Source: Eucommia ulmoides | Taxonomy: Eukaryota > Streptophyta > Magnoliopsida > Garryales > Eucommiaceae | DNA length: 64,000 nucleotides | Assembly (NCBI GenBank): GCA_016647705.1 | Contig: CM028334.1 | Location: 2,294,001-2,358,000 of the forward strand | Reading direction: 5' to 3' | Shown: piece by piece, positions 46,373 to 59,358 of the stretch | How the letters are laid out: each line of letters opens with the position of its first letter | Numbering within the stretch: position 1 is the stretch's first letter | Translations under genes and position numbers: made by a program | Notes under the pieces: model-generated | What the model saw: the letters and a program-made list of their open reading frames with translations, nothing else | Told to the model about the DNA's origin: nothing | The model's database searches: none

Positions 46373-46469
46373 AAAGAAGAAATCAACTCATGCAAGAACG
46401 GAAGGAATTACTTTCATGAGGGTTAAGTCACTAGATCACGTAGAGGAAATCAAAGTATTACTTTCAGAG

Positions 46470-49400
46470 GACTGGTTTTGAAGCTCGTTGTGCCTGGCAT
46501 GAGGAAGAAGAGCAGAGATTTTATTCGAAGGAGAACTGTAGAAGAGGTGTTGAGTATAATGGAGGTTGAGATTGGCTTCATGTATGAGATGCTTTACACC
46601 AAAGCCATGGCGGTGCACTCAAAGATTGGATTCTCTTCGCTTCATTTGCACCACTTCAATCTCTTGCTTTTCTCCCTTGAAGGGAAACACGGTTTTGCAA
46701 AGATCAACGTTGTCATTACCTACGTTTTGCTTGTAGCTGCCATTAGCCAGGAAGCCATTGCTATCCCAATGCTTGTTTTCTCGAACTGGACCTTTGTTTC
46801 CATCACAAGGGGAGTTCTCTCTAGCATTCTTTCTTCTGGTTCTGCCATGATGTTCAAGCAACAACGTAGCTGGTCTGAATCTGCCTCACAGTACAATTTG
46901 ATTAGCTCCTGCCCTGTGAAAAGCCGACAACCCAAATGGCTATAAGAGGCGGCTGACGCTTTATCCCTTGGGGATTTCTTGGATGAGATGCAAAACAAGT
47001 CGCATAGGGGAGTCTCAAGAGAGTTGATACTTTTCATTCTTCATGAAATTGCCAAGAAAGCAGAAGATGCAGTGAATGATGGGATAAAACAACTTACTCG
47101 AAAAATTAATCGAATAAGAACACGTAATGGAAATTAATTTTATCATGTTGTCGTGTGAACCTAATAGGAATTAAATTGGAAAAATATTTAAATCAACACA
47201 CCACAATCACACGAGACAACCAATTTTTAACGTGAAAAACCTCCCAAGGCGAGGAGTAAAAACCACGGGATCGAAATCCACCTAAAATCTCCACTATCAC
47301 AAAATAATGGGAATACAATCTTCTCTAGTTACAACTAGAGGTACATAACCACAATTACTTCAAGATAAAAAATAATCTTGTCAATGGAACAAGATACACA
47401 AGAGCAAAACGAAAATATCTCACCAAATCGCGAGTTTAAACACAACTCAAAACAGTACTGCCGAAACAGTGGTTGCTGACCTCGGAATCCGATCTCCACC
47501 ATTCAGATTGTAAAGAATTGAGTCGCAAACCTATTGTCCAAATTTCAGCCAATCGGACGGTGGATCGACTTCCAATCGGCGTTTGATCGGAACAATGTTG
47601 TCTAGGTTTTCAAGACAGTTTTCTCCCCTTTTTTGTTCTGTTACGGCCATTCACTTTTTGTTCCCACTTTCACTGTTGAAAATTCTGAACACTAGGGATT
47701 AAAAGAAAAAAAAAACTCAAAGTGTGAAATTATAACTTTACCCTTTTGTATTTCCATGGGCCTAAATAAGTGTTGAGTCACTTCACATGTTGTAAATTAA
47801 AACCAAGCCCAACAAATCTCTCCCTTTCCAACTATGTGGAGAGAGTCGTCATTCCAACGATCGAGCAACAAGCTTCAAGCTTTTCTTTTGTTAGAGCCTT
47901 TGTTAACATATCCGCACTATTATCATCCGTGTGGATCTTCTCAAGTTTTAACAACTTGTCGTTTAGAGTTTCTCTTATCCAATGGTACCTGACGTCAATG
48001 TGCTTCGACCTCGAATGAAACATAGAGTTCTTCACCAAATGGATAGCACTTTGACTGTCACAGAATAACACATATTGCTCTTGGTTGAAGCTAAGTTCTG
48101 TCAAGAACTTCTTCATCCATAGCAACTCCTTGCAGGCTTCCAAAGCTGCAATGAACTCTGCCTCTGTTGTTGAAAGTGAAATACATTTTTGCAACCTTGA
48201 CTGTCATGAAACAGCCCCACCGGCAAAAGTAATCAAATAACCTGAAGTAGACATGCGGGCATCCACATCTCCTGCCATATTTACATCTATGTGGCCAACT
48301 AGCACTGGTTTTCCATTTCCAAAACTGAGTCTCGCCTTGGAAGTGCCTCGAAGAAACCTCATTATCCATTTTACTACATCCCAATACTTTCTTCCCGAAT
48401 TTGAAAGAAATTGGCTAACTACACCAACTGCGTAAGCTACATCCGGCATCGTGCAAACCATTGCATACATTAAATTTCCAACTGCTGAGGCGTATGAAAC
48501 TCTTTTCATGTCTTATTTCTCTCTGTCTGTAGAAGGACACTGCTTAATGCTTAGCTTAAAGTGATTAGGAAGAGGGGAACTAAACACTTTAGCCTTATTC
48601 ATATTGAACCTCTCAAGCACCTTTTCAATGTACCGTTCCTGTGATATAAACAACTTCTTTTCTTTTCTATCTCAATAAATTCGAATATCAAGAATCTATT
48701 TTGTGAGCCCCAAGTCCTTCATAGAAAAGGATATATTTAATTACTTTTTCAATTTGTCAATTCTCGATGAATTCTTGCCAACAATCAATATATCATCGAC
48801 ATAGAATAATAAGATGATAAAGTCACCATCACTGAATTTCTGCATAAAAACACAATGATTTGAAGTGGTCTTCGTGTAGCCTTGCTCCCCCATAACTGAC
48901 TCAAACTTCTTGTACCATTATCTAGGTGCCTGTTTCAAACCATAAAGACTTTTCTTCAGCCGATACATGTGATCCTCTTTTCTTTTTGCCCTAAAGCCCT
49001 CTGGTTGCTCCATATAAATCTCTTCCTCCAAGTCACCATGGAGAAAAAGCAATTTTCACATCCATTTGTTCAATCTCCAAGTCTAGGCTAGCTGCTAAGC
49101 CAAGAACAACACGAATAGAAGACATTTTCACAACAGGAAAAAAAATCTCTTCAAAATCAATGCATTTCCTTTGGTTGAATCCTTTGACAACTAATTTAGC
49201 TTTGTATCGTGGCTGTTAAGTATGTTCATCATGTTTTACCCTGTAAACCTACCTGTTTTTCAAAGCTCTTTTGTTCTTAGGCAACTTCACCAATTCAAAA
49301 GTGTAGTTGTTATACAATGATTGCATCTCATTTTGCATGGCTTCAATTCACTCTCTCTTATGTTCATCTTCTATAGCTTCATCATAACACTCAGGTTCTC

Positions 49401-52400
49401 CCCCGTCAGTCAACAACACATACTCATCTACGGAATACCGATTGAAAGGATTTCGGTCTCTGGTAAACGTCTTGAGTGGAATTTCTGGTGGTGTTTGTGG
49501 TACTTATGGCTGATCAAGAGACTCGTGATTAGTCACATTATTTAACGAAGTATCGGCATCGCCTGGACTTAACAGATTGTCCTGGATATCATCTCTAATC
49601 GGCGTCGGCACTCGTGTCAAAGGAACTGGATCTAAGTAAACCAAGTCATCATAGTTTTGAGGCACCGTTTCATCTGTCTTCTCGATATCTCGTATGGTCT
49701 GGTCTTCCATGAACACAACATCTCAACTTCTTATAAGTTTCTTTTGCACCAGATCATAAAATCTGTAACCAAACTCATCTTGGCCATATCTAATAAATAC
49801 GCACTGTCGCGTTTGGACCTCTCATCTTTGAGAATATGCACAAAAGCCTTGCATCCAAAGACGTGTAAGTGATTGTAAGTAACTTCCTTCCCTAACCAAA
49901 CTTTTTCTGGAACGTCAAACTCTAAGAGAACACACGCTATCAGATTCAGTACATGTACAATTGTGCTCAAAGCTTCACCCCAAAAGGATCTTGGCAACTG
50001 TGCTTGTAAAAGTAACCATCTCACCCTTTCAACTAGCATTCTGTTCATTCTCTCTGCCAAACCATTCAATTGAGGAGTCTTTTGAGGTGTCTTTTGGTGA
50101 CGAATGCCTTATTGTCTGCAGTAGTCATCAAAGGGACCCAAATACTTACCCTCGTTATCTGTTCTGATACACTTCAGCTTCTTCCCAGTTTGTCTCTTAA
50201 CAGTGGCCTGAAATTGTTTGAACACATCTAACACTTGATCTTTAGTCTTCAAGGTATACACTTACAACTTCCTTGAGTGATCATCTATGAAAGTCACAAA
50301 ATAGAGAGCACCACCAAGAGTTTTTTGTTTTCATGAGATCACAAACATCAGAATATACTAAATCAAGTATACCTTGTTTTCTTGAAGAAGATGACGACTT
50401 GAAGGCAACTCTGGTTTGCTTTCCCGCCAAGCAATGAGCACACTTCTTCAAATGTGAATTCTTCATTCCCGAAAGGAGATTCTTCTTGGCCAAAATTATC
50501 AACCCTTTTTCACTCATGTGACAAAGCTTCTTGTGCCAAAACTCAATTGTATCATCATTTTCCACCGCATTGATATTGCAATTCGAGATATTTGCTTGCA
50601 TAAAGTACAAGAAAGAACACTTCTTCCCTCTAACCACAACCATGGAACCTTTAGTAAGCTTCCATTGACCATCACTAAATGTGTTGCAAAACCTTTCATC
50701 ATCAAGCTTGCCTGTAGAAATCAAATTCAAGCGGATATTCGGAATGTGTTTGACATTTTTCAAGTCCAACATTGTCCCATTATTGGTCTTCAAGCGCACA
50801 TCTCCAGTGCCAATGATTTTTGCCAAACCATCATTTCTCATCTTCATTGTCCCAAAGTCACCGGTAGTATAGGAAGTGAAGAAATCCTTTCGAGATGTAA
50901 CATGAATAGAGGCGCCACTATCAATGACCCAATTGGTCTCATGACATGCTAGATTAATAACATCGTCATCGCAAATAATGAAAAAGTCTTCAAAAGTAGT
51001 AGTGGCGATAACCTGATCATCCTCCTTTCCTTCATTGTTCTTTTCCTCATTCCATTTTTCCTCATTCTCTTTCTTCAATTTTCTGCAATATTTCTTGATG
51101 TGCCCCTTTAAGCCACAATGATGGCACTCCACATTAGCGAACTTGTTGGACTTGTTTCTGCCTTGATATATATTCTTTGAACCTCTGCTCTTACTCATCA
51201 TCCTATTTTTAGTAACCAAGATGTCCGACTATGAAGAAGAACCATGTGATTTTCTTCTTATCTTTTCGTTCATTATACTATTCTTCACAAAGTCCATATT
51301 GATTATACCATCGGGAGCTGAACTACAAATCGATGTTCTGAACGTTTCCCAAGAGCTCGGCAAAGTACCAAGCTACCATAACCCACGAATCTCTTCATCG
51401 AATTTGATGTCCATTCCATCCAGCTGATTAATTAATCCCTGAAATGTGTTTAAGTGATCTGTCAGTGGAGTTCCGTCTTGGTATCTTAGACTTATCAATT
51501 TATGCATCAAATATATTTTATTATTTCTCGTCTTTCTAGCATACAACTCCTCAAGTTTATTCCAAAGTGTACGGGCATGTTTCTCCCTATTGATGTGATT
51601 CAAAACATTATCATCCACCCATTGTCTAATGTATCCACATACTTTCCAATGTAGCAAGTTTCACTCTTCATCGGATTTATTTTTCGACTTTTCAGTGGCC
51701 ATGGAAATGCAAAAGGGCAAAGTTGTAATTCCACACTTTGAGTTTTCTTTAACCCCTAGTGTTCAGAATTTTTAGCAGTGAAAGTGGGAACAAAAAATGA
51801 ACAGTCGCAGCAGAGCAAAAACGGGGAGAAAGTTGTCTTAAAAACCTAGATAGCATTGTTCCGATGAAACGGCTATTCGAGGACAATCCACCGTCCGATC
51901 AGGCTAAAATTTGGACAGTAGGTTCGCGACTCAGTGCTCTACAATCTGAACGGTGGAGATCGGATTTAGAGGTTGGCAACCACTGTTTCAGTGGGATTGT
52001 TTCAGGTTGTGTTTAAACCTGCGTTTTTGTGAGATCTCTCCGTTTTGCTCGTGTATCTTGTTCCATTGTCAAGATTGTTTTTTATCTTGAAGTAATTATG
52101 GTTGTGTACCTCTAGTTATAACTAGAGAGAATTGTATTCCCATTATTTTGTGATAGTGAAGATTTTGGGTGGACTTCGGTCCCGTGGTTTTTACTCTTCG
52201 CCTTGGAGAGGTTTTTCACGTTAAAAATTGGTTGTCTCGTGTGATTGTAATTGTGGTGTGTTGCTTTAGATATCCCTATAATTTAATTCCTATTAGGTTC
52301 ACACAAGAACGAGATAAAATTAATTTCAGTTGCATGTTCTTATTCGATTAATTTTTTGAGTAAGTCGTTTTATCCCATCAGTGAAAGGTCCTGTATTGAC

Positions 52401-52797
52401 CAGACTGAGTGTGTTTCTTGGCACAGGTTTGTGGGAAGTGAAAGGAGAAGACTATGATGAGTTGCTTGGCTGCAGTGTACAACGGTTTATCGATGAAGGC
52501 ACTCTGATATGGCACATTGCCACTGAAATCTGTCATCAGGCAGCTTCCACCACTAAGAAGAAAGAAGGTGATGTGCATCAACATTTTGTAAGAACTTGTC
52601 TGATTACATGGTTTATATCATCGTACTACAGCCAGACTTTTTGGCATTGAGCATGGACATTGAGAAAACGAGTTACAGAATTGCCTGCGAAGAAGTAGTG
52701 GAATTTTTCTCAACGAGAAGATTGCAGTTAAAATTCAAAAATAACTTACATTATCAAGCTTGTGACATGCTATTAAGATCTGAGCCAAGACCATTGA
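46470..52797 (+). pseudogene. DUF4220/DUF594 membrane-protein pseudogene, split by a Copia element
   Basis: Host sequence at 46470-47076 reads MRKKSRDFIRRRTVEEV, FMYEMLYTKAMAVHSKIGF and ISQEAIAIPMLVFSNWTFVS, matching the middle of the intact gene at 57418 (for example YELLYTKARVVHTKIGY). It resumes at 52386 with LIWHIATEICHQ, matching LLTWHIATEICYQ. The N-terminal membrane part and DUF594 end are absent. There is an in-frame stop after RQPKWL (46943) and a frame change near 52590; the remaining end stops at a retroelement fragment at 52791. It is a decayed paralogue of the intact gene on the same strand 10 kb away. Confidence 0.9.
47077..52380 (-). mobile_element. Copia LTR retrotransposon with inverted terminal repeats
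   Basis: Minus-strand Copia parts appear in order from right to left: gag (from about 51702), zinc knuckle (CHHCGLKGHIKKYC) and protease (VIDSGASIH), integrase, reverse transcriptase and RNase H (to about 47830). A purine-rich tract (complement of 47815-47829) adjoins the left repeat, 47077-47814 (738 bp, starts TGTTGGGC on the element strand and ends CCCATCA). The right repeat, 51699-52380, is in the opposite orientation. A 5-bp target duplication GTGAA (47072-47076 and 52381-52385) flanks the whole. The reading frames have several breaks, and the two repeats differ at roughly one base in ten, so it is old and inactive. Confidence 0.92.
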
Positions 52798-53115
52798 TGT
52801 GATTCAAAACATTATCATCCACCCAGTGTCTAATGTATCCACATACTTTCCGATGTCGCAAGTCCCACTCTTCATCAGATTTATTTTTCGGCTTTTCAGT
52901 GGCCATGGAAATGCAAAAGGGCAAAGTTGTAATTTCACATTTTTGAGTTTTCTTTAACCCCTAGTATTAAGAATTTTTAGCAATGAAAGTGGGAACAAAA
53001 AATGAACAGTCGCAATAGAGCAAAAAAGGGGAGAAAGTTGTCTTAAAAACCTAGATAGCATTGTTCTAATTTGCCTATTGGAGGACGATCCACCATCCGA
53101 TCAGGCTGAAATTTG
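52791..53115. mobile_element. Fragment of the same Copia family: gag start joined to an inverted terminal-repeat piece
   Basis: It matches 51588-51930 at roughly 94 percent by eye count, including the CCATGG junction between the gag start and the inverted terminal repeat. It is bounded by the DUF4220 pseudogene on the left and a LINE fragment on the right. A fossil fragment. Confidence 0.8.
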
Positions 53116-54664
53116 GAATCCTCCTTATGACAGACTCAAAATTAATTTTGATGGAAGCTCTAGAGGAAACTCAGGCGCTATTGGCGGAAGGAGCATTGTC
53201 CGTAATCCAAATGGGAAATTGTTGTTTCAGTTTTGCTCGTTTATTTGGCTTTGGCGTCAGTTTACTAGCAGAAACCAAAACCTTAGGCCCCGTTTTAGTG
53301 TTTCCATTCCAATCCAACCCAAAAATTCTGAGATTGATTTTCGAGAACGCGTTTGGCAACACAAAACTCCACCCTACCCAACCCAAAAAATGATAATTGA
53401 TTCTCAAAATTCTAAAGAAATGAGAAACAATATTTTTATTTTTATTTTGTGTCCAAAAAACTCAACCCATACATGGGACACGTTTGGAATTTTCCAATTT
53501 GTTAATGAGAGCTTTTCTTCTAACTTCATCCCAAGCATTTCTTTTTCTTTTCGCTCGTCTTGACCACAACGCTCGTCCTCGCAATCGTCGATGCCGTCCA
53601 CCTCCTCGCAATCGTCTTCGCTGCCGCCATCGTCCTCGCCATCACCTCCATTGGTTCCTTCCCTCTCACCAAGCCGGCCATCGTCGTTTTCGTAGATTTC
53701 ATCGTCGTCGTAATTTCGATTGCTCACAAAGCCGGCCATCGTCGTCTCACCGTCGTGATTTCGATCCCAACCCATCGAAACAGATTTGGTCCTAGATTTT
53801 GATTTCGTTACTTGATTTAGAGTTCGATTTCGTTTTTCGATTTCAATTTCATCACGAAATCGATTTTGATTTTCGATTTTCATTTCAATTTCGAAATCAA
53901 AATCGAAATCGATTTTGCCACGAAATCGATTTTCGATTTCGAATTCATCACGAATCGATTTAGGGTTTGCTTTTTTATTTTGGTTTAGGATTTGTTCTTA
54001 ATTTTGGTTTAAAGTTGGTTCTTGATTTGGGAGTTTGGTTGAATTTCATAAAATCAATTTTAGGGTTGGTTCTTGATTTGGAGATTTTGATTGAATTTGG
54101 AGGTTTGGTTGAATCAATTCTAGAGTTAGTTCATGAAATCAATTCTTAGATAATATCGTTACCAAACGTGATTCTATTCCTAGTACAAAAAAAACTTTGT
54201 CGTTACCAAACGCATTTATGTTCCCAGTAAGAAACAAAATTCTCAACCCAACTCAACGCAACTCATCCCAGTTGGGTTGAGAAAAGTGGGAACATCAACT
54301 AAACACCACCTTAATGATCGCGCTTCAATTTTGTGTTGAGTTTGAGTAGTCCTCTCTGGATGTGGTCAGTGACAATGCCCTGCTAGTAGACATGGTTGCA
54401 GGTAGAGCTAAAGTCCCTTGGCGTTTAATGTCTTTGATAAGGATTATCAAGGATTTGGCTGAGAGGGTGCAATCTTATATCTGGCACTGTTACAGGGAAG
54501 CTAATATGGCTACGGATATGTTAGATAAGTTAGGAAGTGTTAGTGTCAATCGAACTTTCCGTTCAGAATCAGAATGCCCGTCTTCTGTTCGAAGTTGTTT
54601 AAGACTGGATAAACTTCGCTTCCTGAACATCCGGAAGTCTAAAGATAAGTCTTTTATGGTTTAG
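53116..54664 (+). mobile_element. LINE-type RNase H fragment, split by a TIR element
   Basis: At 53116-53285 the frame reads YDRLKINFDGSSRGNSGAIG and IVRNPNGKLL, the start of a plant LINE-type RNase H domain. After an inserted TIR element the domain continues at about 54313-54664 with SLDVVSDNALLVDMVAG, VPWRLMSLIRIIKDLAERV, IWHCYREANMATDMLDKLG. A frame change lies near 53220. Such domains occur at the C-terminus of L1-type ORF2 and in RNase H-like orphan genes; the reverse transcriptase part is absent here, so this is a fragment. Confidence 0.7.
53286..54313. mobile_element. TIR element with a GC-rich core, copy 2 (inside the LINE fragment)
   Basis: The left end GGCCCCGTTTTAGTGTTTCC, with CCAATCCAACCCAAAAATTC, corresponds to the inverted right end GGTTGAGAAAAGTGGGAACA, AACTAAACACCACC. 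The core at 53560-53790 is CG-rich (CTCGTCCTCGCAATCGTCG) and is followed by AAATCGATTTTCGATTTC repeats. It matches the element at 56011 in its ends. Confidence 0.55.
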
Positions 54665-56010
54665 TCTTGTAGAATTTTCTTTTGTTAGTTTGCTTCTGCG
54701 TTTATTTTGTCGATTCAGAGGTTAGGTCTCGCCCCCTCTGTGACTTGTTTTCTTTTTATAAAACTTCTCCTCGCTTTGAGGTTTTCGGAAAAAAATAAAA
54801 ATAAAAATAAAAATAAATAATAATAATAATAATAATAATGTACAATAATCTATTACTATACATAAAGAAAGCAACAGTTTACCAAAATAGTTAGTTTGGT
54901 AAACATGGAACGGTTCGACATTATTTATATGAGCATTTTCATTTCATATTGCAGATGAGACAAATTCATAGTATGCTGAGCTGTTGTTATTTCCTACTAC
55001 TTTCAGTCTTTTGGATGCCTTGCGGATAGAGGCAGCAATACTTGCCCATTTTCAGTCAACCCGTCCATATCTGTCCGCTTAAAAGAGGATTGGGTACTTG
55101 CTTTAACTAATCGGTTGCAAATGGATTGGATTATATTCTAAATAAGGTTAACACAGATAAATATGGTTATTTCTTAGTGCCCATTTAAAACAACATATGT
55201 TAGGGTCACGGTTGCATGAGATTGGAATATGTATTCAGAGAGAAACGGACAAAAATAGGGAGTGTGTGTGCATACGGGATAATGCTCTCTTAGGTATAAC
55301 GTCTTTTTTGTTCTTTCTTTTTTCTCATCAAATGATGTTGTACTAATTTTCTATATTTATTAGAATCACTTAGCCTTAATCATCATTATAACAAATTGTG
55401 ATTATATATAAATGTATAGACATATGTTTGTTCCGTTTACAAAAGATGCTTTCCTTACAAAAGATGTATCTAAATATGAAAATTGCAAAAGAAAATTACA
55501 AGATTCATAAATTTGTTGTCAACATAAAAAAGGGCAACTCAGTGCGATTATTGTGGATTTTGGAGAGAGTTAGTTGTAAGCAGCCTTCCTCCCATATTAA
55601 TCGCAAAATGTCTTGTCAAAATAAGCTCCCGAATTCATTGAGAAATTAGATAGAATTTTCACTCTTATTTTTGTATTAAAAAAATAAGGAGAGAAAAATA
55701 CAGAGAGAAATGGACGTAGTGAAATTATTCTACCAGGACCGGATTACTTTTTAGAGGAAGAAAGTTATATTGAGAAAGAGAAAATTAATGGTACCAAACT
55801 TATAAAGGGAAATACAAGTCAAATAAAGGTTATCAGTTTTACCTGCATCCGTTTATATGATCCGTATCCTTTTCCCACCTAATAAGTGGACGGATTGATA
55901 CCACCCCACATCTGTAAAACCCATTAATGACTGGCACATATTCGACCCAACCAGCCCATTTGCCACCTCTCCAACAACAGTGAGAGAAAGCCATAGGATG
56001 AGCAATTTAG
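54665..56010. other. Intergenic sequence
   Basis: An AAAAATAAAAATAATAATA microsatellite lies at 54790-54840. Some phrases (GTCCGCTTAAAAGAGGATTG near 55075) look like gene-tail sequence, but no coding exon could be supported. Confidence 0.45.
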
Positions 56011-56606
56011 GTGGCGTTTGGTTGGAATGGGTTGGGTTGAGTTGAATTGGGTTGGATTGAGAATTTTAGGAACAAAATTACGTTTGGTATCGACAATTTT
56101 TGTTTTGTGCTAAAAACATAATGTGTTTGGTAACAATTTTATCCCAAAACTAATTTATTTTTTTTGAATTTTTTTTTGTGTTTGGCGGCGGCCAGACGGC
56201 GGCTGCGGCGGTGGCCGGACGGGCAACGGCCGTGGTGGCGGCGGTCGCTAGAGGTGCCTGGCGGCAGCGAAAGGTCGCCGGAGACGGCGACCGGTCACCG
56301 GACGCCTGCGGCGGCTGCCGGTGAAGGTAGCCGAACGGTGGCCGGCTGCGGCGAACGGCGGCAGGTGGTGATGGTCGGCCGACAGATGAAGACGGAAGTT
56401 GAGAATTTTGGGTTGAGTTTTTTGAACGCAAAAAGAAACAATTTTTTTTTTGTTTCTGGTTTTTTTAATATTTTGAGAATCAATTCCTAATTTTTGGGTT
56501 GGGTTGGATTGAGTTTTGTATTTGCCAAATACGTTCCCAAAAATCAAATCCAACATTCTTGGGTTGGGTTGGGTTGGGTGGGGAACACTAACCAAACGGG
56601 GTCTAT
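56011..56606. mobile_element. TIR element with a GC-rich core, copy 3
   Basis: It starts TAGGTGGCGTTTGGTTGGAA and ends AACACTAACCAAACGGGGTC, with GGGTTGGGTTGAGTTGAATT inside each end. The core at 56180-56390 is very GC-rich (CGGCGGCCAGACGGCGGC, GGCGACCGGTCACCGG) and resembles the core at 45000-45170 in composition and in the GGCCGGACGG word. No believable protein. Confidence 0.6.
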
Positions 56607-57417
56607 TTTCATTCAGGATAGCTTAATTAGTTAAAAATGCAACTTACTAGCTCACTATGTAATAAGTGAAAGCTTAGAATGAAGCGAATGTTATACATCA
56701 AGATTTTCGATCAAGCAACATTCAAATTAAAAAAAAATAAGAAAAAAATAAAAAAATAACTACTTGTTAATCATCAGAGGATAATATTGAATCACTTGGT
56801 GTTGATCAATAAAATCCAATTTCACTACTATGTTGTAATATTTTCTACAATATATAAAGGTCTAATTACATGAAATAATAAAAATAATTTAACCATATAA
56901 CAAAATTATCTACTCTCAATACTGCATCTAACACCGTATGTTTGTCGTAAAATAAACTTAATGTTGAAGCCTTAGCATGCACAGACTGCCCACTACTGTA
57001 CCGAAGCAAAGAATAAACTGAAAGTTCCTCCACTTGGCAAGAAACAGAATGAAGAAATTCTACTTAAGAATCAAGTCATTCCTTGGAAGGATCATAAGTG
57101 AAGCAAAAAGATGAAAGAGATGAAACTTCCCCAAGCCCAACAAGAAACCAATGATTCACTCAAAAAAAAATATAAGAATGAATGCTTCAAAATGACTCAA
57201 TGCCAATACCCAGAGATTGGTTATCATATCTAAAAGGCAAGTCCACTCTAGGGATCACAGCGCATGCGTTCATCTGTCCACTTTGATTGCGTCTTCTATA
57301 TCCCTCTCTCCCTGGGAACTCTAATCCTATAATCCAATTGTTTCCACAGTCACTGAGTCCTATTTTATCCTAGCACAAGTCAGATTAGCATTCAAGCAGG
57401 AGAGCCGAATCAACCAA
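56607..57417 (+). promoter_or_regulatory. 5' flank of the DUF4220 gene
   Basis: AT-rich, then CT-rich (CCCTCTCTCCCTGGG) near 57301, with the start codon at 57418. No specific promoter element can be fixed. Confidence 0.35.
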
Positions 57418-59358
57418 ATGGATATAACGGCGCATTTAATCAACTGGTGGAATACTTGGGGTCTACCAATGTCTATCATCCTCAGTCTTCTACTTCAAGT
57501 TTTTCTAGGTCTAATTGCACCTTTGAGAAGGAGAAGGCAAGAAAAACTGGTCAAACTGCTGATTTGGTCAGCCTACTTGCTTGCAGACTGGATTGCAGTC
57601 TTTGCCATTGGATTGCTTTCCTCTTCTAGCCAAGGTGACAGTTCCTCTGAAGCAACTAAAACGAAGAACAACATCCAAGCATTTTGGTGTCCCTTCTTGC
57701 TGCTGCATCTCGGTGGCCCAGACACCATAACTGCTTTTGCTCGGGAGGATAATGAGTTGTGGCTGAGACATGCCATTTCACTTGTTTACCAGCTTATTTC
57801 ATCTGCTTACATTCTCTTCAGAGCTGTCGCCAACAACCACCTTTTTGTCCCAACAATTCTCATGCTAGTGGTCGCCATCATCAAATACTTTGAGCGTACA
57901 TGTGCTTTTTATCTTGCAAGTTTCAATCGTCTCCGAAGTTCTTATCTGCAAGACTCTGGTCAAGATCCAGTCCTTGAGATGGAACAACTCTTCCATGACT
58001 CAATTGATTTTACCAACTACAAACATGTCGTGGTTTCAGCATATATTTTCTTCAAATTTAAGATTGGAGGAACGCTTGCTGGTTGTGCTTCATCCAAGAG
58101 CAGGAAAAGGGCCCGAGAACTTTTCGGGAGGAGGAGTGCCAAAGAGGTCTTTACTGTAATAGAAAAGGAGCTCCGGTTCACGTATGAATTACTCTACACC
58201 AAGGCTAGGGTTGTGCACACCAAAATTGGGTACCCATTTCGCTTCCTTTGCTTATGTTTAGTTTTGGCGTCATTTCTTATTTTTTCTTTGGAGGAAAAGC
58301 GTGGTCTTGAAAAGTTAGATGTCATCCTCACCTACACTTTACTAATTGCTGCCCTGAGCATGGAAGTAATTACAATCACCACACTTATTTTCTCAAATTG
58401 GACTATTGCCACCCTCCCATGGAATACTGCAAATTTGATCATTTCAAAAGTTCTCTCCACCTTTCACCTGTTCATGAATGCACACAACTGGCCTGCATCC
58501 ATCTCACAGTATAATTTGATTGGCTCCTGCCGAGCGAGAAGTCGACGCCCAAAATGGGTGCAAAAGATTCTCGAGCATTCTCAGTTTCTTGAAGGTCTCC
58601 TTGATGGGATACAAATTCAGTCCCACAAGTCGGTCTCTGAAGAGCTTATGCTTTTCATTTTTCAAGAGATGAAAAGAAAAACTGAAGATGTTGCAGGGGG
58701 CCCGGATGGATTGAATCCAAACTTGGTTTTTAGCAAGGGTTATTGGGCAATCGCAGGAGAAGGTTGTGAAGAAAAACTTGCTTGGGCCATGCCGACTGAA
58801 TTCGATAATTGCCTTCTAACATGGCATATCGCCACTGAAATTTGTTATCAAGTTACCACCACCAGTGATAAAAGAAATGCCAGTCTGAGGGAGGATCATC
58901 GCCAATTCTCTAAGCAACTTTCTGACTATATTATATCTCTTATGGTCATGCAGCCAAACTTAATGGCAGCAATTATAAACATAGGGAAAACTAGATATAA
59001 AGAAACATATGAAGAGGTCATGAGAAACTTCCAATCAGAATCAAAATCCAAACTCCAACAATCATCTGAAGCTTGTAAGATCCTGCTTTCTCAGAAAAGC
59101 TCAGAATTTAGACCTACTACAAATGGCATATCTTGTCTGCCTAATGGGTGTCGTCTGGCTAGAGAGCTGATGGAGTTAACCGATGAAAAGAGATGGATGG
59201 TAATGAGCCGAGTATGGGTGGAAATGATGTGCTATATGGCAAATACCTGCTCAGGACGTGTCCATGCCCAACAATTAAGTAAAGGTGGTGAGCTTCTTAC
59301 ATTCATTTGGTTACTTCTCTCTCACATGGGATTGAGCATCTGGGATGATATGGATTAA
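57418..59358 (+). CDS. DUF4220/DUF594 multi-pass membrane protein, intact
   Basis: A single exon of 646 codons. Hydrophobic segments at about residues 16-34, 48-67, 117-136 and 143-157, and a second group near 275-325, indicate a multi-pass membrane protein. Residues 94-115 carry the DUF4220 signature (LHLGGPDTITAFAREDNELW). The cytosolic stretch contains RRPKWVQ and the LTWHIATEICYQ block, and the C-terminus (WVEMMCYMANTCSG, GGELLTFIWLLLSHMGL) is DUF594. Plant genomes hold many single-exon copies in clusters; the function is not known. The start is the first ATG in frame and gives a hydrophobic N-terminus, as is usual. A decayed paralogue lies at 46470-52797 on the same strand, so the pair probably arose by local duplication. 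Confidence 0.95.
   Translation: MDITAHLINWWNTWGLPMSIILSLLLQVFLGLIAPLRRRRQEKLVKLLIWSAYLLADWIAVFAIGLLSSSSQGDSSSEATKTKNNIQAFWCPFLLLHLGGPDTITAFAREDNELWLRHAISLVYQLISSAYILFRAVANNHLFVPTILMLVVAIIKYFERTCAFYLASFNRLRSSYLQDSGQDPVLEMEQLFHDSIDFTNYKHVVVSAYIFFKFKIGGTLAGCASSKSRKRARELFGRRSAKEVFTVIEKELRFTYELLYTKARVVHTKIGYPFRFLCLCLVLASFLIFSLEEKRGLEKLDVILTYTLLIAALSMEVITITTLIFSNWTIATLPWNTANLIISKVLSTFHLFMNAHNWPASISQYNLIGSCRARSRRPKWVQKILEHSQFLEGLLDGIQIQSHKSVSEELMLFIFQEMKRKTEDVAGGPDGLNPNLVFSKGYWAIAGEGCEEKLAWAMPTEFDNCLLTWHIATEICYQVTTTSDKRNASLREDHRQFSKQLSDYIISLMVMQPNLMAAIINIGKTRYKETYEEVMRNFQSESKSKLQQSSEACKILLSQKSSEFRPTTNGISCLPNGCRLARELMELTDEKRWMVMSRVWVEMMCYMANTCSGRVHAQQLSKGGELLTFIWLLLSHMGLSIWDDMD

What the first reader, a model, noticed from the sequence alone, without database searches (positions are those of the whole stretch)
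47072..52385. Copia element whose terminal repeats are inverted, yet flanked by a clean target-site duplication
The sequence shows GTGAA on both sides, directly abutting TGATGGGATAAAAC on the left and GTTTTATCCCATCA on the right. Both outer ends are therefore the same (U5) end of the terminal repeat, whereas Copia elements normally end U3 on one side and U5 on the other. Because the duplication is intact, the simplest inference is that the DNA integrated with two U5 ends, for example from an aberrant reverse-transcription or self-ligated product, and was not rearranged later. The repeats differ at about one base in ten, so they may never have been identical copies from one round.
Basis: partly seen in the sequence, partly recalled or inferred. 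Interest (0 to 1): 0.85.

Follow-up and report, generated by a model that had tools for sequence, protein, structure and literature searches.

The report
Jumping gene inserted with mirrored ends
An old plant Copia retrotransposon sits in a gene with its two long terminal repeats facing each other instead of pointing the same way, yet with the clean short duplication that integrase leaves, so its DNA copy was most likely misassembled during copying and then inserted by the same (U5) kind of end on both sides.

Summary
Confirmed. A decayed Ty1/copia element (coding strand minus) lies at 47077-52380, flanked by GTGAA. The left LTR is an ordinary 3' LTR. The right LTR is inverted, lacks the first 55 bases of U3, and is joined straight to the inside of gag; the true 5' LTR, PBS, leader and gag start are missing. 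Both outer ends are U5.

One integration of a U5-U5 molecule is the simplest account. (1) Removing the element and one GTGAA restores the host frame across the site, and an uninterrupted tandem paralogue aligns there without a gap. (2) Both outer ends are trimmed to CA, as integrase does. (3) The gag/U3 junction was found at two places in the 947 Mb genome, both here; the second is a 9%-diverged fragment 0.4 kb downstream, apparently repair filler, so the junction is old and no assembly error.

The LTR divergence (K80 0.14) is ordinary: nine direct LTR pairs of the family give 0.11-0.18. It does not show that the LTRs were never identical.

Best mechanism (inferred): nascent minus-strand DNA stopped in gag, switched to U3 of a minus-strand DNA and copied it to the U5 end; integrase then used two U5 ends. 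Joining of two cDNA fragments is the main rival.

The parts
47072..47076 (.). left target-site duplication GTGAA
   Evidence: a single copy restores the host frame
47077..47814 (-). complete LTR, the proper 3' LTR of the minus-strand element; outer end is U5
   Evidence: aligns over its whole length with LTRs of direct-repeat copies
47818..47829 (-). polypurine tract (GGAAAGGGAGAG, followed by ATT and the LTR)
   Evidence: read by eye; a 50-base stretch around it matches next to the 3' LTR in other copies
47832..51704 (-). gag, protease, integrase, reverse transcriptase and RNase H remains in copia order, broken by stops and frameshifts
   Evidence: Pfam: Retrotran_gag_2, Pol_BBD, gag_pre-integrs, SH3_retrovirus, RVT_2 in three pieces; protease and RNase H by eye only, no Pfam hit for RNase H pieces
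51695..51704 (.). inverted junction between gag and U3 (1 base of exact overlap; 3 bases if the parent LTR was the variant seen in L021)
   Evidence: found at two places in the genome, both in the window
51699..52380 (+). inverted LTR, lacking the first 55 bases of U3; outer end is U5
52381..52385 (.). right target-site duplication GTGAA
46427..47076 (+). host gene, DUF4220 part, left of the insertion (carries a stop ending at 46945)
   Evidence: Pfam DUF4220 2.6e-29; 90% to the paralogue L032 over 46453-47076; stop seen
52386..52793 (+). host gene continued, right of the insertion
   Evidence: 81% to the paralogue L032 over 52408-52793
52793..53117 (+). second, shorter copy of gag fragment + junction + U3 fragment, at the edge of a later rearrangement of the host gene
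   Evidence: 91% to 51589-51915; groups with the inverted LTR, support 100/98

Best explanation
A Copia cDNA was misassembled during reverse transcription and then integrated normally. Shown: the integrated molecule reads, in coding sense, reversed U5-R-U3 (truncated) / gag from inside its start / pol / PPT / U3-R-U5, with a 5-base duplication and both ends trimmed to CA. Inferred: nascent minus-strand DNA, having copied U5-R-U3, PPT, pol and most of gag, stopped some 140-160 bases short of the PBS; its 3' end annealed by 1-3 bases to U3 of a minus-strand DNA (its own 5' part, folding back, or the partner copy in the same particle) and copied U3-R-U5 to the end. The opposite strand could be primed by tRNA-primed strong-stop DNA (U5-R), which matches that new end; each terminus would then be a U5 end defined by the primer tRNA. 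Integrase paired the two U5 ends; they differ from U3 ends at one of the first seven bases (TGATGGG against TGTTGGG). Without PBS and 5' LTR the copy could not move again by the normal route, and it decayed.
For: One integration: one GTGAA keeps the host frame open across the point, two shift it; the tandem paralogue at C10:2364580-2364840 is uninterrupted and gap-free there. Integrase-type ends: sister copies carry AAT between LTR end and PBS (11 aligned) and the window carries ATT between PPT and LTR; neither remains at the outer ends. The family leaves 5-base duplications: exact in 7 of 12 copies checked. The inner junction has 1-3 bases of overlap, 55 bases inside U3, with gag interior on the other side. 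Family rule broken only here among copies seen: gag and LTR lie on one strand in 13 of 13 fetched loci that hold both, of 20 fetched; of 44 listed LTR places, 9 pairs within 10 kb are direct and 1 is inverted, this one. Both window LTRs fall in one subfamily of 7 rows, 100/100.
Against: No intermediate was seen. An overlap of 1-3 bases fits end-joining equally well. The two window LTRs show no sister signal: 2 exclusively shared sites, against 7 for the C1 pair and 3 for the C11 pair, while the left LTR shares 5 with one C1 LTR and 4 with one C11 LTR; the best tree puts the right LTR with the C11 pair, weakly (68/18). Second-strand priming is a proposal. One locus only.
Confidence: 0.58

Rival explanations
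1. Two cDNA pieces of the family were joined by host end-joining (before integration, or after two U5 ends of two separate cDNAs were inserted together into one target), giving U5 at both ends.
For: Overlap of 1-3 bases suits microhomology joining; the window LTRs show no special kinship beyond the subfamily.
Against: Needs two broken cDNAs plus joining plus paired integration; no untemplated bases at the junction; both LTRs come from one small subfamily, which a single template explains without coincidence.
Confidence: 0.25
2. An ordinary direct-repeat element inserted, and its 5' LTR was later flipped in place with loss of the U3 start, PBS, leader and gag start.
For: Later rearrangement did hit this locus: about 336 bases of host gene are replaced by 2.07 kb just downstream.
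Against: The outer breakpoint would have to fall exactly between the LTR tip and GTGAA, so that the flipped end reads U5 to the last base, as it does. The joined sequence shows no remnant of PBS or leader at the junction.
Confidence: 0.1
3. Two unrelated insertions in opposite orientation, or an assembly error, that mimic one element.
For: None found beyond the unusual structure.
Against: Matching GTGAA by chance about 0.0015 and exact frame continuity; a 9%-diverged second copy of the junction shows that the junction is old.
Confidence: 0.03
4. Autointegration or a self-ligated circle reopened at U5 ends.
For: Autointegration of Ty cDNA is described as giving circles with inverted LTRs (PMC4751563, passages).
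Against: Integrase joins LTR tips (general knowledge); here the inner junction is 55 bases inside U3, and a circle would still have to be opened exactly at both U5 tips.
Confidence: 0.02

Closest known systems
Ty1/copia LTR retrotransposon (plant; Tork/Tnt1-like by recall)
   Same: gag-protease-integrase-RT order, LTRs TG...CA, PBS-like site in sister copies, 5-base target duplication
   Different: LTRs inverted; 5' LTR, PBS, leader and gag start absent; both outer ends U5
Template-switch complexes of Triticeae (Sabot and Schulman 2007, PMC1950507, whole text read)
   Same: abnormal product of reverse transcription inserted with an intact 5-base duplication
   Different: those hold three LTRs and two internal regions; here a strand reversal gives two inverted LTRs and two U5 ends
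DIRS-1 (inverted LTRs; PMC5633606, passages)
   Same: inverted terminal repeats around gag and RT
   Different: DIRS-1 is a tyrosine-recombinase element with circular intermediates; here integrase remains and a target duplication are present, and sister copies have direct LTRs
Autointegration circles with inverted LTRs (Ty; PMC4751563, passages)
   Same: inverted LTRs arising from one family of cDNA
   Different: junction would be at an LTR tip and the product circular; here the junction is inside U3 and the product was integrated as a linear molecule
Aberrant HIV-1 integrations (PMC5041404, passages including parts of the abstract)
   Same: abnormal insertions linked to integrase
   Different: the passages tie those to one viral end that is poorly inserted, with host rearrangements; here both ends share a clean duplication

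Membership tests
Ty1/copia LTR retrotransposon | integrase before reverse transcriptase in pol | tested here: met
   gag_pre-integrs and SH3_retrovirus upstream of RVT_2 on the minus strand
Ty1/copia LTR retrotransposon | two LTRs in direct orientation | tested here: not met
   inverted here; direct in sister copies. So it is a derivative made by a copia family, not a standard copia structure
Ty1/copia LTR retrotransposon | 5-base target-site duplication | tested here: met
   GTGAA on both sides; frame and paralogue agree
Ty1/copia LTR retrotransposon | PBS after the 5' LTR | tested here: not met
   absent at the junction; a PBS-like sequence, mutated in some, is present in the 11 sister copies aligned
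DIRS-like element | inverted terminal repeats | tested here: met
DIRS-like element | tyrosine recombinase, no target duplication (recalled, except the recombinase) | tested here: not met
   no recombinase match among the ten distinct gag-pol pieces scanned against Pfam (stretches between the pieces not scanned); target duplication present
Autointegration product | inner junction at an LTR tip | tested here: not met
   junction 55 bases inside U3
Template-switch product | intact duplication with a short-homology junction between two template places | tested here: met
   end-joining would look alike
Template-switch product | intermediate cDNA in virus-like particles | not testable with these tools
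   needs living material

The most novel reading that the evidence does not exclude
Copia reverse transcriptase can turn back on minus-strand DNA to make linear molecules with two U5 ends, and integrase inserts such pairs cleanly; these form a standing class of inverted-LTR insertions that annotation programs miss because they look for direct repeats.
Probability: 0.35. Interest if true: 0.68.

Novelty: new variant of a known kind. Interest (0 to 1): 0.52.

Why it matters
If right, this is a natural record that a plant Copia integrase can join two U5 ends in concert in a living genome, and a fossil of strand reversal during reverse transcription. LTR-finding programs generally look for direct repeats (general knowledge, not tested here), so the frequency of such insertions is unknown and could be counted now with a simple inverted-LTR scan.

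Tried and rejected
Palindrome hot spot: I first thought CCATGG was shared by gag and U3 and caused the switch. None of the 11 sister copies aligned has CCATGG at that place in gag; it belongs to U3. Rejected.

A mobile family of inverted elements: the second junction copy suggested it. Rejected because two places in the genome were found to span the junction, both in the window (29 bases, up to 3 mismatches, backward control 0; of 41 matches from 40 scored of 143 candidates, 2 span the junction and 39 lie on one side of it), because the second copy groups with the window's inverted LTR (100/98), and because it begins where host homology stops (52793) inside a rearrangement. A junction more diverged than these searches reach is not excluded.

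Different parents for the two LTRs: not shown and not excluded. Holding the window's two LTRs and the second copy together costs 0.16 log units, p-AU 0.43; the left LTR with one C11 LTR gives p-AU 0.087. Rows: L030_4460 was left out of the tree and of the reference states in the site counts because its LTR start was misplaced; 30 rows were used, of which the second copy fills 28% of columns.

Relatives in viral contigs: none found. Pfam gave no usable match for the 39-residue gag piece, the 98-residue joined host stretch, 53006-53563, or the RNase H pieces. Ten paper searches showed, in the listings seen, no report of an LTR retrotransposon with U5 at both ends and a target duplication. Four listings were capped (20 of 146, 15 of 21, 15 of 151, 20 of 24) and only four papers were opened, so a precedent may exist, also in journals not held.

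Full report
GTGAA at 47072-47076 and 52381-52385 abuts TGATGGGATAAAAC and GTTTTATCCCATCA. Coding remains are on the minus strand in copia order: Retrotran_gag_2, Pol_BBD and gag_pre-integrs, SH3_retrovirus, then RVT_2 in three pieces; protease and RNase H were recognised by eye only. On that strand the left LTR (47077-47814) is the proper 3' LTR with a polypurine tract before it. The right LTR (51699-52380) is reversed and lacks the first 55 bases of U3.

What should be there is known from sister copies. In the 11 copies aligned, the LTR end is followed by AAT, a PBS-like TGGTATC..AGAGC, mutated in some (its identity as the initiator-tRNA site is recalled), and further sequence that includes the gag start (by eye); the point where the window's gag begins lies about 160 bases after the LTR end. 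The window lacks all of this. Its gag joins U3 with one base of exact overlap; one family LTR (L021) has a variant that would make it three. In 13 of 13 fetched loci with both gag and LTR (20 fetched; 6 hold LTR only, 1 has two direct LTRs without a listed gag match) the strands agree. Of 44 LTR places listed by the two searches (40 scored of 432 and of 424 candidates), 9 pairs within 10 kb are direct and one is inverted.

One insertion event. With the element and one GTGAA removed, the host frame runs open across the point, from a stop at 46945 to one at 52650; keeping both GTGAA shifts it into stops. The stop at 46945 shows that this host copy is itself decayed. The host gene carries DUF4220. 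A tandem paralogue about 18 kb away (C10:2364580-2364840, minus) is uninterrupted, 84% alike, and aligns without a gap across the point; its pentamer differs by one base from GTGAA. Exact 5-base duplications flank 7 of 12 other copies checked; of the 5 misses, 3 differ by one base, one (L015) was measured one base short at a damaged LTR end, and one (L025) does not match. The C11 element, checked apart, differs by one base. Sister and window sequences carry AAT or ATT just outside LTR tips on the inner side; neither is left at the two outer ends, as expected after integrase trimming.

The junction is old and local. A 29-base junction pattern with up to 3 mismatches hits two places in the genome, both in the window; the backward control hits none. 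A 325-base query over the second copy gives 41 matches (40 of 143 candidates scored), of which 2 span the junction and 39 lie on one side. The second copy (52793-53117) shares 196 of 214 U3 sites with the right LTR and 181 with the left, and groups with the right LTR at 100/98. It starts where host homology stops; the paralogue is next matched at 54869-54902 (a 34-base match, 91%) and then from 55287, so about 336 bases of host are replaced by about 2.07 kb. I read it as filler copied from the nearby junction during break repair (inference). It argues strongly against an assembly error.

Age and sameness. The window LTR pair has K80 0.1415; nine direct pairs give 0.114 to 0.183 (one pair, L017/L018, lies 29 kb apart and is taken as one interrupted element). 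The seven-row subfamily that holds both window LTRs and the second copy has support 100/100, but apart from the right LTR with the second copy it is weakly resolved inside. Sisterhood of the two window LTRs is not rejected (p-AU 0.43) and not supported: 2 exclusively shared sites, against 7 for the C1 pair and 3 for the C11 pair, and up to 5 for pairs that are not of one element. So intramolecular and two-template versions remain open.

Mechanism. The structure is that of minus-strand DNA that turned back: after U5-R-U3-PPT-pol-gag it continues with U3-R-U5 in the opposite sense. A stop in gag, annealing of 1-3 bases to U3 in a minus-strand DNA, and extension to its 5' end give this strand (with a one-base slip if the parent LTR was not of the L021 type). 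Strong-stop DNA could prime the other strand. These steps are inferred. Joined cDNA fragments are the main rival and leave the same integrated product. Autointegration and circles fail on the junction position. Flipping in place would need one breakpoint exactly at the LTR tip.

Precedent. Sabot and Schulman (PMC1950507, read whole) describe template-switch complexes with intact duplications, but with three LTRs and two internal regions. DIRS-1 has inverted LTRs but a tyrosine recombinase (PMC5633606, passages). Inverted LTRs arise in autointegration circles (PMC4751563, passages). In the listings of my ten searches I saw no U5-U5 LTR retrotransposon with a target duplication; four listings were capped and few papers were opened. 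I therefore call it a new variant of a known kind.

Noticed in passing
52793-54868: About 2.07 kb replaces some 336 bases of the host gene's 3' part; its left edge is a 325-base copy of the gag/U3 junction from 0.9 kb away, followed by a stretch that reads like a plant RNase H-type domain (WNPPYDRLKINFDGSSRGN, by eye; no Pfam hit).
   Followed up: partly
46427-59331 and L032: Tandem array of DUF4220-type genes: the paralogue L032 matches the window again at 57475-59331 (64%).
   Followed up: no
L017 and L018 (G000:C11:32522896-32553216): A sister copy whose LTRs lie about 29 kb apart, with gag split between the two fetched stretches, suggesting a large nested insertion.
   Followed up: no
L016 (G000:C5:6901960-6905379): A short direct-repeat copy with two LTRs, an exact ATTCT duplication and no listed gag match: probably an internally deleted copy.
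   Followed up: no
L025 and L026 (G000:C15:2077794 and 1993117): Two LTRs about 85 kb apart are nearly identical (end branches 0.009 and 0.011) while the partner LTR of L026 is much further off, suggesting a recent segmental duplication.
   Followed up: no
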